DNA of 64,000 nt from Occultella kanbiaonis (GTDB lineage Bacteria; Actinomycetota; Actinomycetes; Actinomycetales; Beutenbergiaceae): the NCBI RefSeq assembly GCF_009708215.1, contig NZ_CP046175.1, positions 4,278,001-4,342,000 on the forward strand, written 5' to 3'. Shown in pieces: positions 2,096-64,000 of this stretch. Position 1 is the first letter of the stretch. Every line of letters starts with the position of its first letter. The position numbers and the translations under genes were made by a program. The notes below the pieces were generated by a model. The model saw nothing but the letters and a program-made list of their open reading frames with translations. It was not told the DNA's origin and did not search any database.

Positions 2096-3340
2096 TCACC
2101 ATTCCGGCTTGACGTTGATGAACTCCGCCGTGGACTGGTCGACCGGGAGCACGATCTCCGGTTGGCCGGCCACGTACTGCTGGATGAAGTGGGCCCCGTT
2201 CGGGCGGCCGGCCTCGTCCCAGGCGAGGTCACCGACCACGGTCGGCACCGTGTTGGAGTGCAGCCAGTCGATCAGTTCCTGCTGGCACTCGCCCTGTTCG
2301 GCGCACCCGACCGCCTCGACCGCCGCCTGGACCACCTGCCCGGCGGTGTAGGCGTTGGCCTCGTCCTCGCTCGGCTCGCGGTCGTACAGTTCCGCGATCG
2401 CCTCGACGAACTCGGCGTTGCCCTCGTAGTCCGCGGTCGGCGAGTACCCGGTGGGGGCGAGCACACCCTCGACGCCGGCACCGAGTGCGTCCACGAACTC
2501 GGGCAGCGTGGGTGCCGTCGTGAACGCGGCCATCCGCGGCTGGTAGTTCAGCTGCTGCACCGCGACGATCATGTTCACGCCGTCCTGGTACTGCGTGCCG
2601 CCGACCATGAGGTCCGCATCGGCCTCGGCCAGCGCCGCGGCGATCCCGGAGAAGTCGGTGGTGTTCGGCGGGTACACCTCGTCGACGAGCGTCGTGATGC
2701 CGGCCTCCTCGAGCTTGTCCTTGAGTCCGTAGGCAGCGCCCTGGGCGAGCGGGTCGTCCATCGTGGCGTAGGAGGCCGTCTGCGGCCGCTCGTCCTCGGG
2801 CATCTCCATGATGTAGTCGAAGAGGTAGTTGTAGTGGTCGTCGGCGATCGCCGGCGCCGCGTAGAAGAGGTTGCCGTAGCCCGCCTCGAAGATGTTCGCG
2901 GCGGCACCGGCGGGCTCCACGAAGAGCATCCCGTACTCGTCGACCACGCGGGCCGAGGCGAGTACCAGGCGGCTCGAGAACGGGCCGATCACCAGGTCGA
3001 CCTCGTCCTGGGTGATCAGCGCCTCGTAGTCGGCGACGACCCGGTCCGCGTTGGACTGGTCGTCCACGATCTTCAGCTCGATCTGGCGCCCGAGGAGGCC
3101 GCCGTTCGCGTTGACCGTATCCGCCCAGAGCTCGTAGCCGCGCTGCACGCCCTGGCCCGGTTCGGCGAAGTCACCGGTGAGCGGTAGCGAGATCCCGATC
3201 AGGATGGGGTCGTCGCCACCTTCGCCGCCGTCGTCGCCCTCGTCGCCACCGCCACTGCACGCGCTCAGGATCAGCGCCGTGGCACCGATCCCGGCGATCA
3301 ACGCCGAGGTCCGGCGCCGTCGTGAGGTCCACCTGCTCAT
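2096..3340 (-). CDS. ABC transporter substrate-binding lipoprotein (LivK-like, Peripla_BP_6)
   Basis: A 414-residue extracellular solute receptor. The N-terminus MSRWTSRRRRTS is followed by a hydrophobic segment and the lipobox LSAC, then a Gly/Asp-rich spacer, so it is a membrane-anchored lipoprotein. The next segment ILIGISLPLTGDFAEPGQG is typical of Leu/Ile/Val-type receptors; these also bind amides, aromatic acids and other ligands. I chose the ATG at 3340 because AGGAGG lies five bases upstream; an upstream in-frame ATG at 3409 lacks this and would place 23 residues before the signal peptide. It is the first gene of the liv cassette, preceded by a LacI-type palindrome at 3406-3417. Confidence 0.9.
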   Translation of the reverse strand: MSRWTSRRRRTSALIAGIGATALILSACSGGGDEGDDGGEGGDDPILIGISLPLTGDFAEPGQGVQRGYELWADTVNANGGLLGRQIELKIVDDQSNADRVVADYEALITQDEVDLVIGPFSSRLVLASARVVDEYGMLFVEPAGAAANIFEAGYGNLFYAAPAIADDHYNYLFDYIMEMPEDERPQTASYATMDDPLAQGAAYGLKDKLEEAGITTLVDEVYPPNTTDFSGIAAALAEADADLMVGGTQYQDGVNMIVAVQQLNYQPRMAAFTTAPTLPEFVDALGAGVEGVLAPTGYSPTADYEGNAEFVEAIAELYDREPSEDEANAYTAGQVVQAAVEAVGCAEQGECQQELIDWLHSNTVPTVVGDLAWDEAGRPNGAHFIQQYVAGQPEIVLPVDQSTAEFINVKPEW

Positions 3341-12210: not shown

Positions 12211-12556
12211 TCGACTCCGCTGACCCGAAGTGCGGGTCAGCGCCAACGTGACCCGCAACTCGCGCCAGTGGAACGAGGGTGGGCGAACCCGTCGCGACTC
12301 CACTGACCCGAAATGTGGGTGAGCGCCTACGTGACCCGCAACTCGGGTCAGTGGAACGAGGGCCACTTTGGGGTTCCGAGCGTGGGGAGCCCGTCGCGAC
12401 TCCACAGACCGGAAATGTGGGTGAGCGCCTACGTGACCCGCAACTCGGGTCAGTGGAACTAGTGCGACTCGTGGAACGTGGGCGAGACCATCGCGACTCC
12501 ACAGACCCGAAGTGCGGGTCGGTGTGCGCGTAACCCGCAACTCGAGTCAGTGGAAC
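12211..12556. repeat. four tandem long palindromic repeats
   Basis: Four copies of a roughly 64-66 bp unit occur at 12211-12274, 12292-12357, 12394-12459 and 12491-12556, 81-102 bp apart. Each begins with a TCGCGACTCC-like segment and ends with CAGTGGAAC. In copy 2 the arms CCACTGACCCGA (12300-12311) and TCGGGTCAGTGG (12343-12354) are perfect 12-bp inverted repeats, with an inner pair of the type GTGGGT/ACCCGC. Each unit could fold into a long stem-loop. Copies 2 and 3 are nearly identical; 1 and 4 are more diverged. Together they fill the approximately 500-bp gap between two genes; I see no gene here. Confidence 0.85.
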
Positions 12557-12587
12557 GAAAGGCGACTCGTGGAAGTCGGCGAGAGTG

Positions 12588-33661: not shown

Positions 33662-35617
33662 TCAATGGGTCGGTGCGGATGGACCTTCGGGTGCAGGGCC
33701 GGCCGGCGGCCGCGGGCCGAAGTTCGGGGCGGCCGGGTTCGGCGGAGCGCCGTTAGGGCCGGGCTGCGCGGGGTACGGACCTGGCTGCGCTGGGTACGGG
33801 CCCGGCTGGGCGGCGTACGGGCCGGGCTGCACCGGGTACGCACCGGGCTGCGCGGCGTACGCACCGGGCTGCGCGGCGTACGCACCGGGCTGCGCGGCGT
33901 ACGCACCGGGCTGCGCGGCGTACGGACCCGGCTGCGCGGCGTACGGGCCGAGCGCACCCTGGCTCGCCGCGTCCGCACTGACGATCCGCACGCGCGCCAA
34001 CTGCGAGGCCAGGTACGCGAAGGCGGCTGCGAACAGCACCACCAGCGGCACCGGCGTGAGCAGACCGAGCACGGATCCGCCGTCGAACAACCGCTGCGAG
34101 AACAGCTGCGACAGCACCAGGACGGCGTGCTGGGTGTCCGGGCTGAACGAAGTCAGGTACGGCCACAGCGCGCCCTGCGGACCCAGCCACGTCTCAATGG
34201 CGAACACCCCCAGCACGGCCACGCCGGCGATCCGCAGGGCGCCGCGCCGGTCCGGGCTGCGACGGGCCGCAGCGAAGACGAACGTGAACAGGAAGAGCGC
34301 CGGGATCGCGACGAACGGCGGCTCGAGCGTCGGCCGGTTCAGCCAGTTCACGTCCCGCAGGATCATGAAGTAGGCGGGCGCGAGGACGCCGAGTCCCACG
34401 AAGAGCCACGGCGCGAAGAACCAGAGCACCCGTTCGCTTCGCCGGCCGAACGGGCGCAGGTAGCCGATGGCGTACCCACCGGCGGCGGCGATCGCGGTAC
34501 CCACCAGCGCGTTGATCAGGGCGCTGCCCCATGTCGTCACGACCACCCCGGCCACCGAGACGCCGAGCTCGTCGTCCGGCAGTCCGAGGCTGGTGAGCCA
34601 GGGCAGTGCGACAACGATCAAGCCCACGAGCGCGACCGCCGCGATGACCACTCCCACGATGCCCGCCGAGCCATCGGTGCGCGGGAGCGGCTGTGGTTCC
34701 ATGCGGTAGCGCGTTCCCATCACCAGAGCGGTCCCGAGCAGCCCGAAGAGCACGAGCGGGATCAGCACCACGATCGCGATCGCGCCGGCCACCCCTGAGT
34801 CCGCGTAGAGGAAGGCGGCCTCATAGATCAGGGCGCCAGGCAGCTCGCGGCCGGCCCCCACGATGTAGGGCGTGAAGGCCTGCCAGCCGACGGCGATCCC
34901 GGCGAGCCCGGTTCCGACGAGCGCCAGCGCGGTGGCGCGACCGCGGCCGGGTCCGTCCGCGAGGCGTCCCACGAGCGCTCCGACGAGCAGGGCGGCTCCG
35001 AGCCCGACCGCGAGGAAGCCGAGGACGACCCCGCCGCCATCGCCCGGCTCGAGCCGGCCGACGCCGAAGCCGTACGAGAACGGCGCCATGGTGACGAGAC
35101 CGGCGCCGAGGATGCCGAGGCCGATCGCGGCCGTGCGCGTCGTCGCCGTGGCGAGGAGCCGGCCGATGAGCAGCCCGACGCCGAAGCCGAGGAGCGCCGG
35201 CGCGAGACCGGCGGCGGCGCCGAGCAGCAGACCGGTCAGCAACTCGGGTGGGATCTTCGCGTAGTTGTCGAGGCCGACGAAGCCCCCGCCACCGAGGAGC
35301 GCACGGTCCTGGAGGCTGACGATGAACAGGCGGACGGTGGGGATCACTTGCCCCAGGAGCAGTGCGATGGCGGCCGGCGCGAGGAGCAGCAGGCCAAGGC
35401 CGGTGCGGGCCGGCGGCTCGGCCGAGGTGCCGAGCGGCGACGGCGCGTAGGGGCCCGGGTGCGGTGCTGGCGGGTCCGGGTCCGGGTCCGGGTGTGGCGC
35501 CTGAGCGTTCGGGCCCGGTGGCGGCGCATAGGTGCCCTGCCCAGCCGGTGGCTGCTGCTGACCGGCATGCTGGTGCGACGGCGTACTCGTCCACGGCCCC
35601 TGATCTGACGTCCCCAT
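33662..35617 (-). CDS. MalF/MalG-like fused ABC permease-type membrane protein with repeat tail
   Basis: A 651-residue protein. A Pro/Gln-rich N-terminal tail (about 70 residues) precedes LLLLAPAAIALLLGQVIPTVRLFIVSLQD and GGFVGLDNYAKI, the entry signature of MalF-type sugar permeases. After several helices a second half begins at TTWGSALINALVGTAIAAAGGYAIGYLRPFG, which resembles MalG N-terminal helices. I cannot find clear EAA loops, so ATPase coupling is doubtful. The C-terminus is a run of AAQPGAY/PYPAQPG repeats. No binding protein or ATPase is adjacent. A TACCCT -10-like element ends seven bases before the ATG with no Shine-Dalgarno, so it may be leaderless. Function unknown. Confidence 0.8.
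   Translation of the reverse strand: MGTSDQGPWTSTPSHQHAGQQQPPAGQGTYAPPPGPNAQAPHPDPDPDPPAPHPGPYAPSPLGTSAEPPARTGLGLLLLAPAAIALLLGQVIPTVRLFIVSLQDRALLGGGGFVGLDNYAKIPPELLTGLLLGAAAGLAPALLGFGVGLLIGRLLATATTRTAAIGLGILGAGLVTMAPFSYGFGVGRLEPGDGGGVVLGFLAVGLGAALLVGALVGRLADGPGRGRATALALVGTGLAGIAVGWQAFTPYIVGAGRELPGALIYEAAFLYADSGVAGAIAIVVLIPLVLFGLLGTALVMGTRYRMEPQPLPRTDGSAGIVGVVIAAVALVGLIVVALPWLTSLGLPDDELGVSVAGVVVTTWGSALINALVGTAIAAAGGYAIGYLRPFGRRSERVLWFFAPWLFVGLGVLAPAYFMILRDVNWLNRPTLEPPFVAIPALFLFTFVFAAARRSPDRRGALRIAGVAVLGVFAIETWLGPQGALWPYLTSFSPDTQHAVLVLSQLFSQRLFDGGSVLGLLTPVPLVVLFAAAFAYLASQLARVRIVSADAASQGALGPYAAQPGPYAAQPGAYAAQPGAYAAQPGAYAAQPGAYPVQPGPYAAQPGPYPAQPGPYPAQPGPNGAPPNPAAPNFGPRPPAGPAPEGPSAPTH
33770..33960 (-). 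repeat. 21-bp in-frame tandem repeats encoding AAQPG(A/P)Y
   Basis: A unit of about 21 bp containing CGGCGTACGCACCGGGCTGCG is repeated roughly eight times near the 3' end of the membrane protein gene, nearly identical in four central copies. It encodes a Tyr/Pro/Gln/Ala heptapeptide repeat. Copy number could vary without breaking the frame. Confidence 0.85.
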
Positions 35618-58431: not shown

Positions 58432-59142
58432 TCAGCTCGCGATCTTCAGGCGGTACCCGATGCCGCGCACGGAGGCGACCTCGAGGCCCTCGGCCGCGAG
58501 GAGGCGCCGGCGCAGCCGCTTGACCGTCGAGACGACCACGTCGGAGTCCCCCAGGTAGCCGGTCCGCCACACGTTCGCGGTGAGCTCGGCGAAGGACCAG
58601 ACCCGGTCCGTCTCGGAGGCGAGCGCGGCAAGGAGGTCGAACTCGCGGATGGACAGGTGCACGCGCCGGCCGCGGATGGTGACCTCCCGGGTGGCCAGGT
58701 TCACCTGGAGCGGTCCGCGGGTGAAGATCCGGGCCGCACGGCCGGCCGCATCGGCCCGACCGACAGGATCGGCCCGACCGACAGCATCGGCCCGGTCGGC
58801 CGCATCACGCCTGCGGACCGCATCGGCCCGACCGGCCGCATCCGAGCGCTCGGCCACGTCCCGCCGGCCCGGCGGGCCTGCGGCCGCCCAGTCCCCGACC
58901 GTGTGGCTGCCGACCCCGTGGTCGGAGGCCGCCCGGCTGGACCTCGCGCGCACCAGATCGCTCACGCCATCGGCAGCGTCGTAGCGGTCGTGGGCGAGCA
59001 ACTCCCTGGCGGCGTGCGTGTCGGCGGCGGCGACCACCACGGCGTGCGGCCCGACCAGCCGCGCGACCTCGCTGCACACCTCGAGCGGCACCCCGATGCA
59101 CAGCACGTAGTTGCGTTCGGTCTCAAGATCCCCAATAGACAC
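58432..59142 (-). CDS. OmpR-type winged-helix regulator with repeat linker
   Basis: A 236-residue protein. Residues 1-60 ([20 protein letters not shown], then [14 protein letters not shown]) resemble a degenerate receiver lacking obvious phospho-acceptor residues. A long Arg/Ala/Asp linker contains hexapeptide repeats ([18 protein letters not shown]). The C-terminal 95 residues are a trans_reg_C winged helix: [29 protein letters not shown] and [36 protein letters not shown] lies ten bases before the GTG start. No histidine kinase is adjacent. The 11-bp phased repeats upstream are the obvious candidate binding site, shared with the divergent S8 protease gene. Confidence 0.85.
58750..58857 (-). 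repeat. six 18-bp tandem repeats within the winged-helix gene
   Basis: Units of 18 bp of the type ATCGGCCCGACCGACAGG begin at 58750, 58768, 58786, 58804, 58822 and 58840, the first two almost identical. They encode the D-A-V-G-R-A hexapeptides of the linker and could vary in copy number in frame. Confidence 0.8.
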
Positions 59143-59272
59143 CTGACTGCTACCTCCCCCGAGTGCGGTCTGCCGTGATCCTTTCCAATTGCGCAGGTCA
59201 GGTCAAGGGTTCGGGCCACTCCGGCCCCGCACGGACCCGGCGTGGCGCGCCCGACACACCGCCCGGCGACCG

Positions 59273-59393
59273 GTTGAACACCGGGCGACGGCCACCTGAC
59301 CATCACCTGAACGTTGCCTGATCGCCGGCTGACGACCAGGTGACGAGGTCCTGACCGTGACCTGACCGCAACCTGACCGCGTTCTGGCCGGAT
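59273..59393. promoter_or_regulatory. array of 11-bp phased direct repeats (OmpR-type binding array)
   Basis: Pentamers of the CCTGA type recur exactly every 11 bp: 59295, 59306, 59317, 59328 (GCTGA), 59339 (GGTGA), 59350, 59361, 59372 and 59383 (TCTGG); weaker matches continue the phase at 59273 and 59284. The strongest units read CCTGACCGTGA, CCTGACCGCAA and CCTGACCGCGT. They lie in the 365-bp gap between the divergent winged-helix and S8 protease genes. OmpR/PhoP-family proteins bind such helically phased direct repeats. The rest of the gap shows no gene. Confidence 0.8.
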
Positions 59394-59507
59394 GCCGTCC
59401 TTGTCCGGTTACCCGGTTCACGGAAGCGTGGCGGAATCCCCTGATCCGGGGGATCACATACGCGTACCCGAGCACCGCCCGGGCACGCGTCGTCACATGG
59501 AGGCACA

Positions 59508-62500
59508 GTGCGTACACCCCTGATGTTCGCCAGACGACTGGTGGTCGCCGCCTCTGCGGCAGCGGCGATGGTCGCGACGATGGCCGTCGCAATCATCCCC
59601 GCTGCCGCGGAGCCGACGACTCCGGCCGTCCCGGCCACAGCCGACGAGAAATTCACGGACGAGGCGATGTCGACACTGTCGGCAGCCGACTCCGCGGACT
59701 TCTGGATCCGCTTCGCCGACCGCGCAGACCTGAGCGCGGCGGCGGCGACCGCCGACTGGGACGCCCGCGGCGTCGCCGTCCACGACGCCCTCGTCCAGAC
59801 CGCCGAGGCCGCTCAGGCCGGCGTGGTCGCCGAGCTCACCGCGGCCGGCGCCACCTTCGAGAGCCACTGGATCTCGAACGCGATCCTGGTCCAGGGTGGC
59901 TCCCTCGACCTGGCCCGCCAGGCTGCGTCGAGCAGCGAGGTCCTCGAGATCCGGCAGACCACGACCTACCCGGCCGAGGAACCTGTCGCCGGCCCCACGG
60001 TCGAGACCTCCTCGATGGGTCGCAACGTCCTCGAATGGGGCATCAGCGCCATCAACGCCGATGACGTCTGGGCCGAGTACGGCGTGACCGGCGAGGGCAT
60101 CACCGTCGCGAACATCGACTCCGGCGTCCAGGGTGACCACCCGGCGCTCGCCGCGCACTACCGCGGCCTCCAGGCCGATGGCACGGTGGACAACAACTAC
60201 AACTGGTTCGACGTCGCCGGCGCCTGTGACGGCTCCCCGTGTGACACCGACGGTCACGGCACCCACACGATGGGCACGATGATCGGCAGCGACGGTGGCG
60301 CCAACCAGATCGGTGTCGCCCCCGGCGCCGACTGGATCGCCGCGAACGGCTGCTCCACCTGCGCCGACGCCGACCTGATCGCCTCCGGCGAGTGGGTCAT
60401 CGCGCCGACCGACTCCGCAGGTGGGAACGCCGACCCGACGAAGCGCCCGCACATCGTGAACAACTCCTGGGGCTCGCGCACCCCGACGAACGACCCGTTC
60501 ATGGAGGACGTCATCGCCGCATGGGAGGCCGCCGGGATCTTCGGCACCTGGTCCAACGGCAACAGCGGACCGTCCTGCTCCACGTCCGGATCCCCGGGCA
60601 GCCGGACCCTCACCTACTCGGTCGGGGCCTTCGACTCCGGCGGCAACATCGCCTCGTTCTCCGCCCGTGGCCCCGGCCAGGACGGCACCATCAAGCCGAA
60701 CATCGCGGCCCCCGGTGCGAACGTGCGCTCCTCGGTCCCGGGCGACGCCTACGGTACGGCGTCGGGCACCTCGATGGCGGCCCCGCACCTGGCCGGGGCG
60801 ATCGCCCTGCTGTGGAGCGCGGCACCGTCGCTGATCGGTGACATCGCCGGCACCCAGGCCCTCCTGGACGCAACCGCCACGGACGTCGACGACACCACCT
60901 GTGGTGGCACGGCCGAGGACAACAACGTCTGGGGTGAGGGTCGTCTCGACGCCCTCGCGCTCGTCCAGGCCGCACCCACCGCCGAGGCAGGCACCCTGAC
61001 CGGCACGGTCACCAGCTCCGACGGCGGCCCGATCGCGGGTGCGACCGTCACCGTCACCGGTGAGAACGAGCGGGTCCTGACCACCGACGAGAACGGCGCC
61101 TTCACTGGCACGTTCGTCGCCGGGGCCTACACCGTGACCGCGACCGCGTTCGGATACGCCTCGGCCACGGCCGACGTCACCGTCGTAGCCGAGGAGACCG
61201 TCAGCGTGGACCTGGTACTGGAGGCAGCGGCGTCGTTCGCGGTCTCCGGGACCGTCACGAACGAGGCCGACGGCGCACCCGTGGCGGGCGCGACCGTCGC
61301 CTTCACAGGTGCCCCGATCGAGCCGGTCACCACGGGTGCGGACGGTACCTACGCCGTCGCCGACGTGCCGGCCGGCACGTACACCGTCACCATCACCGGT
61401 GATCGGTGCAGCGCTCCGTTCTCGACCGAGCTCGTGGTCGACGGTGACGAGACGCTCGACGCGGCGCTCGTCGGCCTCCAGGACGACTACGGGTACTTCT
61501 GCTCCGTCGGCACCGACGGGTACCGACAGGGCGACACCCTGCTCGCCCTGACCGGTGACGACGCCGCGGTGGCCGTGGAGCTACCGTTCGCGTTCCCGTT
61601 CTACGGGGGCTCCTACTCGACGGCGTACGTGTCCACGAACGGGCACGTGAACTTCCTCGCCGCGATCACCGCGTACGCCAACGCGGCACTGCCGACGGCG
61701 GCCGCACCGAACGCCGCCGTCTACGGGTTCTGGGACGACTTGACCTTCGGCAACGGCGGCACCGCCTACACGGCGACCACCACGATCGACGGTGAGGACG
61801 CGTTCGTCATCGAGTACCGGGACGTGAGCCCGTTCTCGAGCACGGACACCGTGAGCTTCTCGATCACCCTGTTCGCCGGCGGCGACGTGGAGATCGGCTA
61901 CGGCCCGGCCTCCAACGCGGAGAACCCGCGCCTGCTCGGTAACTCGGCAACGGTCGGCATCGAGAACGAGTCCGGCACGGTCGCGAGCCAGTACTCCTTC
62001 AACGAGCCCGTCCTGGCCACGGGGTCGTCGGTGCGGTACGAACTGCCGCCGAACGGCACCGTGTTCGGGAACGTGACGGACTTCAACGACGGCCTGGCCG
62101 TCGCTGGGGCGACGGTCACGGCCACCCCGGATGACGGTGGCGAGCCGCGGACGGTCACCACCGACGCGAACGGCGACTACAACCTGTTGCTGTTCTTCGG
62201 CGCGTACACCGTCGACATCGAGGCCCCGGGGTACACCACCCGCACGCGGGACGTCGTGATCAACGTCGACGGCGAACGCAACCGGTTCTCCCCGCAGCTG
62301 AAGACGGGCATCGCAACGGTCGCTCCGCCGTCGTACTCCTGGACCCTCACCGAGGGCCAGACCCGCACGGCGGACCTGACCATCTCCAACTCCGGCTCGG
62401 CCCCGCTCGCCTACACCATCGGTGAGCTCCCCCGGGCGGTCAACGAGGCGGCGGCGGTGCCGGCGCTCTCGACGGCCGCACTGGACGCAGCCGTGGTGCC

Positions 62501-64000
62501 CGCGGGCAACACCTCGCTGGCGCAGGTCAACTCGGCCTTTGCCGAACTCGAGGAGGCGGCCGCTCAGACCGACCCGAACGCCCGCACGGCGCTGGGCCTG
62601 TACACGGACGGCCAGCGCGACCAGCTGGCCGCACCGGTCACGCCGGACGCCGTCGGGGACATCCTGGCCCAGTGGGACTCCAACCTGTCCGGGGTCGCCT
62701 GGGGCGTCGGGTACACCGGCGACGTGTGGATCTCCGACGCGGAGCAGGTCGTCAACCAGCAGTACTCGACGGCCGGTACACCGGGCAGCCAGTTCCCGGC
62801 GAACTGGGGCGGCACCTGGTCCGGTGACCTCGCCCAGGACTCCACGACCGGGGACCTGTGCCAGGTGAACGTCGGCGGGGACAACGGGATCCACTGCTTC
62901 GAGGAGGCGACGGGGGCGGCCACCACCACCCTCACCGGCTCCCCGTGGTCGTCCATCTCCCAGCGCGGGCTGGCCTACAACGCAGCCGAGGACGTCTTCT
63001 ACATCGGCGGTTGGAACGAGGGCATCATCTACACGGTGGCGGGCACCACGCACGCCACCCCGGGTGAGACCCTCGCCCAGTGCACGCCGGAGGACCCGTC
63101 CATCGCGGGCATCGCGTACAACCCCACCTCGAACACGATCTGGTACGTGAACAGCGCGCTGGTCACGTCGTTCTTCCAGATCTCGCCCGAGGACTGCTCG
63201 ACGATCACCACGGTCGCCTACCCGGTGGCCGGTGAGGGCCCGGGCTCCGGCCTGGACCTGGACGCCACCGGCGCCCTCTGGACGGCGAACCAGCTGACCG
63301 GCGAGGTCTACCTCGTGGACGTCGGCGACCCGAACGTCACGGACGTGCCGTGGCTGACGGTCACCCCGGCCGAGGGCACCGTGCGGGCCGGTCGGTCCGT
63401 CACGCTGGACGTCACGGTGGACACCACGGGCCTCGCGCCCGGGGTGTACGGCGCGAACATCCTGGTGCAGACGAACGCCGGGCGGGTCCCGACGATCACG
63501 GTCCCGGTGACCCTGATCGTCTCCGCCTACCAGGTCGGTGTGAACGCCGGAGGCGGCGCCTACACCGACGCCGCGGAGTTCGCCTGGTCTGCCGATCAGC
63601 CGCTCTCCGCGGGTGACTGGGGCTGGACGGGTCAGCGCACCGAGACCGAGGCGACCGACCTCGCGATCGGCGGCACCACGGAGGACACGCTGTTCCAGAC
63701 CCGGCGCACCGGGATCTTCAGCTACGTGTTCACCGACGCGCCGGCCGGGACGTACGCGATCGACCTCGGGTTCGCCGAGTTCGACGCGGACTACCCGGAG
63801 CGTGACCGCCTGTTCGACGTGCTGGTCAACGGCGAGTACGCGTTGGTCGCCGTGGACGTCGCGGAGGAGGCCGGCGGCCTGTGGGCCGACCAGCACACCG
63901 TGATCGTCGAGCACGAGGGCGGCGATCTGGAGGTCGAGTTCGCCAACCGGCGCAGCTACGAGTACCCGATCCTGAACACGCTGGCTGTCACCGAGCGGGG
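59508..64000 (+). CDS. very large secreted S8 subtilisin-like protease, partial
   Basis: The first 1,497 codons are present; the end is outside the window. GTG with GGAGG four bases upstream begins a signal peptide (about residues 1-36, Ala-rich). The catalytic triad is Asp 204 (NIDSGVQ), His 250 (DGHGTHT) and Ser 422 (SGTSMAAP), like bacillopeptidase F. Two carboxypeptidase-regulatory-like domains follow (GTLTGTVTSSDGGPIAGATV; FAVSGTVTNEADGAPVAGATV), then a beta-rich NIDO-like segment (FYGGSYSTAYVSTNGHVNF), another regulatory-like domain (GTVFGNVTDFNDGLAVAGATV), a propeller-like region and, from about residue 1,340, a malectin-like carbohydrate-binding domain. Probably a cell-surface or exported protease. 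Confidence 0.95.
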   Translation, partial: MRTPLMFARRLVVAASAAAAMVATMAVAIIPAAAEPTTPAVPATADEKFTDEAMSTLSAADSADFWIRFADRADLSAAAATADWDARGVAVHDALVQTAEAAQAGVVAELTAAGATFESHWISNAILVQGGSLDLARQAASSSEVLEIRQTTTYPAEEPVAGPTVETSSMGRNVLEWGISAINADDVWAEYGVTGEGITVANIDSGVQGDHPALAAHYRGLQADGTVDNNYNWFDVAGACDGSPCDTDGHGTHTMGTMIGSDGGANQIGVAPGADWIAANGCSTCADADLIASGEWVIAPTDSAGGNADPTKRPHIVNNSWGSRTPTNDPFMEDVIAAWEAAGIFGTWSNGNSGPSCSTSGSPGSRTLTYSVGAFDSGGNIASFSARGPGQDGTIKPNIAAPGANVRSSVPGDAYGTASGTSMAAPHLAGAIALLWSAAPSLIGDIAGTQALLDATATDVDDTTCGGTAEDNNVWGEGRLDALALVQAAPTAEAGTLTGTVTSSDGGPIAGATVTVTGENERVLTTDENGAFTGTFVAGAYTVTATAFGYASATADVTVVAEETVSVDLVLEAAASFAVSGTVTNEADGAPVAGATVAFTGAPIEPVTTGADGTYAVADVPAGTYTVTITGDRCSAPFSTELVVDGDETLDAALVGLQDDYGYFCSVGTDGYRQGDTLLALTGDDAAVAVELPFAFPFYGGSYSTAYVSTNGHVNFLAAITAYANAALPTAAAPNAAVYGFWDDLTFGNGGTAYTATTTIDGEDAFVIEYRDVSPFSSTDTVSFSITLFAGGDVEIGYGPASNAENPRLLGNSATVGIENESGTVASQYSFNEPVLATGSSVRYELPPNGTVFGNVTDFNDGLAVAGATVTATPDDGGEPRTVTTDANGDYNLLLFFGAYTVDIEAPGYTTRTRDVVINVDGERNRFSPQLKTGIATVAPPSYSWTLTEGQTRTADLTISNSGSAPLAYTIGELPRAVNEAAAVPALSTAALDAAVVPAGNTSLAQVNSAFAELEEAAAQTDPNARTALGLYTDGQRDQLAAPVTPDAVGDILAQWDSNLSGVAWGVGYTGDVWISDAEQVVNQQYSTAGTPGSQFPANWGGTWSGDLAQDSTTGDLCQVNVGGDNGIHCFEEATGAATTTLTGSPWSSISQRGLAYNAAEDVFYIGGWNEGIIYTVAGTTHATPGETLAQCTPEDPSIAGIAYNPTSNTIWYVNSALVTSFFQISPEDCSTITTVAYPVAGEGPGSGLDLDATGALWTANQLTGEVYLVDVGDPNVTDVPWLTVTPAEGTVRAGRSVTLDVTVDTTGLAPGVYGANILVQTNAGRVPTITVPVTLIVSAYQVGVNAGGGAYTDAAEFAWSADQPLSAGDWGWTGQRTETEATDLAIGGTTEDTLFQTRRTGIFSYVFTDAPAGTYAIDLGFAEFDADYPERDRLFDVLVNGEYALVAVDVAEEAGGLWADQHTVIVEHEGGDLEVEFANRRSYEYPILNTLAVTER

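What the first reader, a model, noticed from the sequence alone, without database searches (positions are those of the whole stretch)
59273..59393. Eleven-unit helically phased repeat array controlling a giant protease
CCTGA-type pentamers occur at exactly 11-bp intervals for nine consecutive positions, with two weaker ones continuing the phase, about 121 bp in all. OmpR-family regulators usually bind two to four such repeats. An array this long between an OmpR-type regulator gene and a giant secreted protease suggests cooperative filament-like binding and a sharp on/off switch. I know of no described counterpart of this exact arrangement.
Basis: partly seen in the sequence, partly recalled or inferred. 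Interest (0 to 1): 0.76.

Follow-up and report, generated by a model that had tools for sequence, protein, structure and literature searches.

The report
Long operator array before secreted protease
A run of about eleven to twelve short DNA sites, spaced one helical turn apart, sits between a small regulator gene and a large secreted-protease gene in an actinobacterium; its core bases are kept in related species, so it is probably a real docking strip for the regulator and an unusually long version of a known kind of switch.

Summary
The array is real. Eleven 11-bp units fill 59273-59393; nine carry TGA in one register, the highest phased TGA count in the window. A twelfth weak unit (59394-59404) overlaps a -35-like CTTGTCC. 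In four Occultella genomes 1 of 33 TGA columns varies, against 31 of 88 other unit columns; one species has one unit fewer and keeps phase. All 6 close pattern matches in the genome lie in this array.

Regulator and protease occur in the same 7 of 24 family genomes. The divergent pair recurs in other families, usually with fewer or looser sites: 14 of 16 non-Occultella loci tested have at least one YYGMMC pair 11 bp apart. L079 and G435 have none, and G590 mixes 9- and 11-bp steps.

The regulator is not a complete response regulator: half a receiver, a variable linker, a winged helix. Best reading: a multi-site operator for this regulator, probably activating the protease. Binding, activation and filament formation are inferred. 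It is a new variant of PHO-box/OmpR-type tandem operators; printed examples that I saw reach six units, or four boxes in one species. "No described counterpart" is too strong.

The parts
58432..59142 (-). Divergent regulator gene, 236 aa, GTG start: half-receiver (about residues 11-57), variable low-complexity linker, C-terminal winged helix (158-232)
   Evidence: Pfam Trans_reg_C 2.5e-15, no Response_reg hit; AlphaFold2 secondary structure; alignment of 7 orthologues
59201..59206 (-). -35-like TTGACC of the regulator gene
   Evidence: sequence; the first 72 bp upstream of the regulator start are invariant in 4 Occultella genomes; by eye, the promoter scan reports none
59178..59183 (-). -10-like AAGGAT of the regulator gene, 17-bp spacer
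   Evidence: sequence; invariant in 4 Occultella genomes; by eye
59273..59393 (+). Eleven 11-bp units with core YTGAMC in one register
59394..59404 (+). Twelfth weak in-register unit (GCCGTCC), overlapping the -35-like element
   Evidence: CCGTC at this place also in G004 and G012
59401..59406 (+). -35-like TTGTCC of the protease gene
   Evidence: CTTG element at -101 to -108 from the protease start in 7 of 7 loci of the family
59424..59429 (+). weak -10-like AAGCGT (17-bp spacer), tentative
   Evidence: sequence by eye; promoter scan finds no sigma-70 consensus match
59436..59454 (+). leader hairpin
   Evidence: sequence kept in Occultella apart from single changes; fold of the leader, z -1.58
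59499..59503 (+). Shine-Dalgarno-like GGAGG of the protease
   Evidence: sequence; GGAGGCAC in the 7 family loci
59508..64000 (+). Secreted S8 protease, GTG start; 1500 aa in full, ends at 64010 beyond the window
   Evidence: Peptidase_S8 4.7e-42, CarboxypepD_reg (3 stretches), BACON_2, Malectin; full ORF in L066 2509-7011

Best explanation
The array is a tandem operator of 11-12 half-sites for the divergently encoded half-receiver winged-helix regulator. One regulator molecule most likely docks per 11-bp unit, all on one face of the DNA and in the same head-to-tail direction. Occupancy spreads from the best units (three CCTGACC copies near the protease promoter) to the weaker ones and ends at the protease -35 region, where bound regulator most likely recruits RNA polymerase to a promoter with a poor -10. 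SHOWN here: array, register, core conservation, uniqueness in the genome by pattern search, gene pairing, protein architecture (model and profiles). INFERRED: that this regulator is the ligand, one molecule per unit, cooperativity, activation rather than repression, and control by protein level or another input rather than by phosphorylation.
For: Phased array far beyond chance. Core TGA variable in 1 of 33 columns against 31 of 88 other unit columns over 4 Occultella genomes, Fisher P 1.5e-4 (units paired by hand, the missing G002 unit put at slot 6). O. glacieicola (G002) has one 11-bp unit fewer inside the array and keeps the register. Of 24 matches to a four-unit pattern with up to 3 mismatches in the 5.65-Mb genome 9 lie in the array, among them 6 of 6 with at most 1 mismatch; backward control 7. 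Regulator (E<=1e-14) and protease (E<=1e-30) are in the same 7 of 24 family genomes. In a class sample 16 of 394 genomes had a regulator hit at E<=1e-20 (7 candidates scored per genome in the rows listed): two Occultella, 12 of family f38, G435 and G211. In 12 of 12 f38 loci and G435 the opposite strand upstream encodes a DFWVRF-like N-terminus as in the window's protease; the 5 of these 13 that I scanned (G279, G293, G333, G360, G435) have Peptidase_S8 and CarboxypepD_reg, as has G590. G211 was dropped as an ordinary response regulator by its sequence and neighbour. YYGMMC pairs 11 bp apart exceed Markov chance in G004, G011, G012 and G590 (P 0.0004 or less each, 3,000 simulations; motif defined after seeing the sequences). 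11-nt direct repeat units are the known spacing for PhoB/PhoP-type regulators (PMC4415409 passages), and the winged helix matches PhoP, SaeR and GlnR folds. The CTTG element beside the array is in 7 of 7 family loci.
Against: No binding data. G435 keeps both genes but only one YYGMMC lies between them, and L079 has no 11-bp pair. G590 mixes 9- and 11-bp steps. The Occultella register relative to the -35 is second, not first, in G011 and G012 (offset 5 scores higher) and in 2 of 10 f38 loci with 4 units; with 6 or 8 units it is first in only 2 of 10 f38 loci, so a rigid polymerase contact is not general. The TCA-type core reads on the strand of the regulator gene, opposite to protease transcription; in textbook PhoB activation the repeats are written on the activated gene's coding strand (recalled). 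The putative -10 is weak and the promoter scan found nothing. A regulator homologue is also seen beside the protease in another arrangement (L089, same direction).
Confidence: 0.6

Rival explanations
1. The same regulator binds the array but represses: a protein coat over the array and -35 blocks polymerase, and may also damp its own divergent promoter.
For: The array runs into the -35. BldC coating is said to suggest repression by steric block (PMC5859096 section 12). The lack of a strict register relative to the -35 in G011 and G012 needs no polymerase contact. Units are oriented towards the regulator gene.
Against: A repressor does not need 120 bp upstream of the -35 (inference). The protease -10 looks poor, as in the activated afsS promoter (PMC10936776 passages). 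The array ends about 66 bp short of the regulator's own -35-like site.
Confidence: 0.22
2. The array is a long PHO box bound by the genome's PhoP (assumed present, not looked for), so the protease is phosphate-controlled; the divergent regulator is secondary.
For: The reverse complement of units reads GKTCAGG, close to the PhoP unit GTTCACC, also 11 nt. PHO-like triplets lie in the same genome upstream of a PhoX domain (inside the longest ORF, before the domain) and 53 bp upstream of an LTD/Exo_endo_phos ORF.
Against: Those sites read GKTCA followed by AC, CG, CC or TG, whereas most array units read GKTCAGG. Nothing like the array was found elsewhere in the genome, whereas PhoP is a general regulator. 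Regulator and protease co-occur in the same 7 of 24 family genomes.
Confidence: 0.12
3. A neutral minisatellite made by slippage that happens to lie in the promoter.
For: Unit number differs by one between species; tandem arrays arise this way.
Against: Spacers have diverged while the core has not; TRF detects only 2.8 copies; phased elements recur in other genera.
Confidence: 0.04

Closest known systems
PhoP complex operators (PHO boxes of 11-nt direct repeat units) in Streptomyces
   Same: 11-bp direct repeats read by an OmpR/PhoB-type winged helix; strong core units with weaker neighbours filled as protein rises; units near or over the -35 (PMC7866108, PMC6283541: passages)
   Different: 2 to 6 units in the passages read, with four boxes (units not counted) reported for S. 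natalensis; full two-component regulator, many targets; here 11-12 units, half-receiver regulator, no second site found by pattern search
M. tuberculosis PhoP transcription activation complex with six PhoP molecules (PDB 9ji5; title only)
   Same: By its title several PhoP protomers with polymerase; chain J aligned to the model at 34% identity
   Different: Six protomers, full response regulator; I did not read the paper
SARP activators such as AfsR on afs boxes
   Same: 11-bp repeats, OmpR-type DNA-binding domain, weak promoter elements (PMC10936776 passages)
   Different: SARPs carry a BTA domain after the DNA-binding domain, and the afs box has two repeats; no such domain here
BldC head-to-tail filaments on direct repeats
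   Same: Variable-length cooperative coating of direct repeats by a small regulator (PMC5859096 abstract and section 12)
   Different: MerR-like fold, 9-bp repeats with an AT-rich part
GlnR
   Same: OmpR-family winged helix that matches the model; recalled to act without conventional phosphorylation
   Different: Has a whole receiver domain and different, paired boxes (both recalled)

Membership tests
OmpR/PhoB-type winged-helix DNA-binding proteins | Trans_reg_C winged-helix domain | tested here: met
   PF00486 2.5e-15 above cutoff; 45 distinct PDB sequences at E<=1e-3; Foldseek to SaeR, PhoP, GlnR
Two-component response regulator | Complete receiver domain with phosphoacceptor Asp at the end of beta-3 | tested here: not met
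   No Response_reg hit at E<=0.001 in the window's protein or in 3 of 3 relatives scanned; AlphaFold2 gives only beta-alpha-beta-alpha, residues 11-57, then a low-confidence linker
Two-component response regulator | Cognate histidine kinase gene alongside | tested here: not met
   Neighbours on the far side of the regulator are methionyl-tRNA synthetase and TatD; on the near side is the protease. A kinase elsewhere in the genome was not excluded
SARP | BTA domain C-terminal to the winged helix | tested here: not met
   Winged helix match ends at residue 232 of 236
PHO-box operator | 11-nt direct repeat units | tested here: met
PHO-box operator | GTTCACC consensus and PhoP binding | tested here: inconclusive
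   Most units read GKTCAGG; PHO-like sites elsewhere in the genome differ after GKTCA; binding not testable
Cooperative filament on DNA (BldC-like behaviour) | Multimer coating demonstrated in vitro | not testable with these tools
   needs footprinting, stoichiometry or structure
S8 subtilase | Peptidase_S8 domain | tested here: met
   PF00082 4.7e-42; catalytic triad residues not checked one by one

The most novel reading that the evidence does not exclude
A family of phosphorylation-independent half-receiver winged-helix regulators, each dedicated to one adjacent secreted subtilase, assembles an ordered head-to-tail protein strip on its operator. Array length, from about 2-4 units in family f38 through 5-10 in G004, G011 and G012 to 10-12 in Occultella, is the evolving part that sets the steepness of protease expression.
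Probability: 0.2. Interest if true: 0.75.

Novelty: new variant of a known kind. Interest (0 to 1): 0.52.

Why it matters
If right, it is a natural series of operators of different length for one regulator-promoter pair. It lets one ask directly how the number of tandem sites sets cooperativity and threshold in OmpR/PhoB-type regulation, in genomes where pattern search shows one target and no kinase gene lies alongside. It would also give a function to a recurring half-receiver regulator family paired with secreted subtilases, for which my ten paper searches brought up no description.

Tried and rejected
Phase by TGA alone misled at first: in G004, G011 and G012 it picked a register 5 bp off, because units there carry two motifs half a turn apart (TGAMC and CYGMC). 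Anchoring on the -35 CTTG and scoring with a matrix from G000's eleven units gave, with 4 units, the Occultella register first in G000, G002, G003, G004 and 8 of 10 f38 loci, and second in G011, G012, L080 and L085; with 6 or 8 units it is first in 2 of 10 f38 loci. I keep this as a suggestion only: the anchor was chosen after seeing the alignments.

A shared register as proof of activation: rejected, for that reason.

A second array in the regulator's direction: looked for in 7 genomes, longest GA run 3 (G011), 2 (G002), otherwise 1.

Other targets: none with 1 mismatch or less in the own genome. In six relatives a three-unit pattern matched with at most 1 mismatch at the locus in G001, G003, G011 and G012, and once elsewhere (G001 C36:37217); G002's locus match has 2 mismatches and G004 has none at the locus.

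Leader hairpin as a riboregulator: 3 of 7 leaders folded, z -1.58, -2.59, -1.20; not pursued. Promoter and terminator scans: 0 hits.

Proteases in the order: 16 matches in 12 of 297 genomes; upstream regions of the nine outside the family were read by eye. L088 and L090 have the divergent regulator and L089 a same-direction winged-helix gene; the remaining six were not settled.

Structure model: mean pLDDT 60.5, so only the two folded parts are used. Dropped rows: L098 (G211), and the first L078 anchor as a chance match in another gene. L099 and L100 were seen only as printed blocks and are not in the counts.

Literature: ten searches (on the genus) in the open-licence library only; four of them returned nothing. 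In the listings and passages I saw no operator said to have more than six 11-nt units; four boxes in S. natalensis could mean eight, and that paper was not looked for. An identifier that I recalled for the main PhoP operator paper was not held.

Full report
WHAT IS THERE. The window lies in a single-contig 5.65-Mb genome (G000). Its nearest held relatives are Occultella: the contig lengths of G001, G002 and G003 equal those of O. aeris, O. glacieicola and O. gossypii. Between the regulator gene (start 59142, minus strand) and the protease gene (GTG 59508) lie 365 bp. In them, 59273-59393 is eleven 11-bp units: GTTGAACACCG GGCGACGGCCA CCTGACCATCA CCTGAACGTTG CCTGATCGCCG GCTGACGACCA GGTGACGAGGT CCTGACCGTGA CCTGACCGCAA CCTGACCGCGT TCTGGCCGGAT. 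A twelfth unit, GCCGTCCTTGT, follows in register. Nine of the twelve have TGA; G at position 4 is in all twelve.

CHANCE. In 20,000 Markov sequences of the same length and composition no more than 6 TGA fell in one register, against 10 observed in the intergenic region, of which 9 are in the array and one (59176) is outside it. Across the window the array is the maximum at period 11, and other periods from 8 to 25 reach at most 6. In the whole genome a four-unit pattern with up to 3 mismatches matches 24 times (backward control 7); 9 of these, among them all 6 with at most 1 mismatch, are in this array.

SELECTION. Among four Occultella genomes 1 of 33 TGA columns varies against 31 of 88 other unit columns (Fisher P 1.5e-4; with CTGA as the core 4 of 44 against 28 of 77, P 0.0011). 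The core was chosen from the array itself and the units were paired by hand, so these values are somewhat flattering, although the minimum over all 11 rotations falls at TGA. O. glacieicola has ten units where the others have eleven: one whole unit is missing and the register is kept. The 72 bp upstream of the regulator start are invariant in all four, so divergence is low in parts of this region anyway; it is the contrast inside the units that matters.

PARTNERS. The regulator has a conserved N-terminal segment of about 50 residues, modelled as beta-alpha-beta-alpha, a linker that varies in length, and a winged helix. Pfam finds no receiver domain in it or in three relatives from f38 and f58. 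Beta-3 with its phosphoacceptor is missing, so control by a kinase in the usual way is unlikely (inference). The protease is 1500-1501 aa in all seven family genomes; the window's copy and that of G004 carry S8, three CarboxypepD_reg stretches, a malectin and a BACON-like match. Both genes are in the same 7 of 24 family genomes. In a sample of 198 order genomes the winged helix was found at E<=1e-20 in 5. In 394 class genomes 16 had regulator hits at E<=1e-20. The 12 in family f38 and G435 all have a divergent gene with a DFWVRF-like N-terminus; in the 5 of these 13 scanned it is an S8 protease with CarboxypepD_reg domains, and the two read in full, G293 and G360, also end in a malectin domain. 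G211 looks like an ordinary two-component regulator. Two further divergent pairs are in G590 and G639 (S8 scanned in G590).

SAME OPERATOR ELSEWHERE. The element shared across genera is YYGMMC at 11-bp steps. Pairs at distance 11: 2 in G004, 5 in G011, 7 in G012, 4 in G590 (P 0.0004 or less each), 1 in G639 (P 0.024), 1 in each of 9 of the 10 f38 loci tested (P 0.014-0.024 each, related sequences, so not independent) and none in L079. G435 has a single element. G590 also has 9-bp steps. So the long, regular array is an Occultella feature. Shorter phased sets are wider, and neither is universal among holders of the gene pair.

HOW IT MOST LIKELY WORKS. PhoB-type winged helices use PHO boxes of two 11-nt direct repeat units (PMC4415409 passages), bound head to tail (recalled). 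In the pitH2 operator four strong core units fill first and two weaker neighbours follow, with several gel-shift complexes (PMC7866108 passages). The window's array has three CCTGACC units near the promoter and weaker ones towards both ends, and overlaps a CTTG -35-like element found in 7 of 7 family loci. I therefore favour spreading occupancy ending in activation of the protease. The step to activation is the weakest: the register relative to the -35 is shared only in part (figures under Tried and rejected), and the units are oriented towards the regulator gene. [quoted passage not shown]

KNOWN OR NEW. Tandem 11-bp operators and cooperative multi-protomer binding are known, including a PDB entry titled with six PhoP molecules (title only). 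What was not matched in the listings and passages that I saw is a length of 11-12 units together with a dedicated half-receiver regulator and a secreted protease as the apparent single target. I rate it a new variant of a known kind.

Noticed in passing
58739-58842: An 18-bp tandem repeat lies inside the linker-coding part of the regulator gene; protein lengths are 236, 231, 218 and 227 aa in four Occultella: a length-variable linker in a regulator that faces a length-variable array.
   Followed up: partly
L070, L071, L072 (G004, G011, G012) intergenic regions: Units carry two motifs half a helical turn apart (TGAMC and CYGMC), so the register is ambiguous; Occultella uses one of them.
   Followed up: partly
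L073 about 3122-3148 and L074 about 3012-3038: PHO-box-like triplets in the own genome before a PhoX domain and before an LTD/Exo_endo_phos ORF; similar sequences occur in G001 and G003 (both) and G002 (the second), neighbours there not checked.
   Followed up: partly
L089 (G617): A related winged-helix gene lies upstream of the protease in the same direction instead of divergent.
   Followed up: no
12292-12584: Tandem repeat of a 97-bp unit, 3.0 copies.
   Followed up: no
33759-33950: Tandem repeat of a 21-bp unit, 9.1 copies.
   Followed up: no
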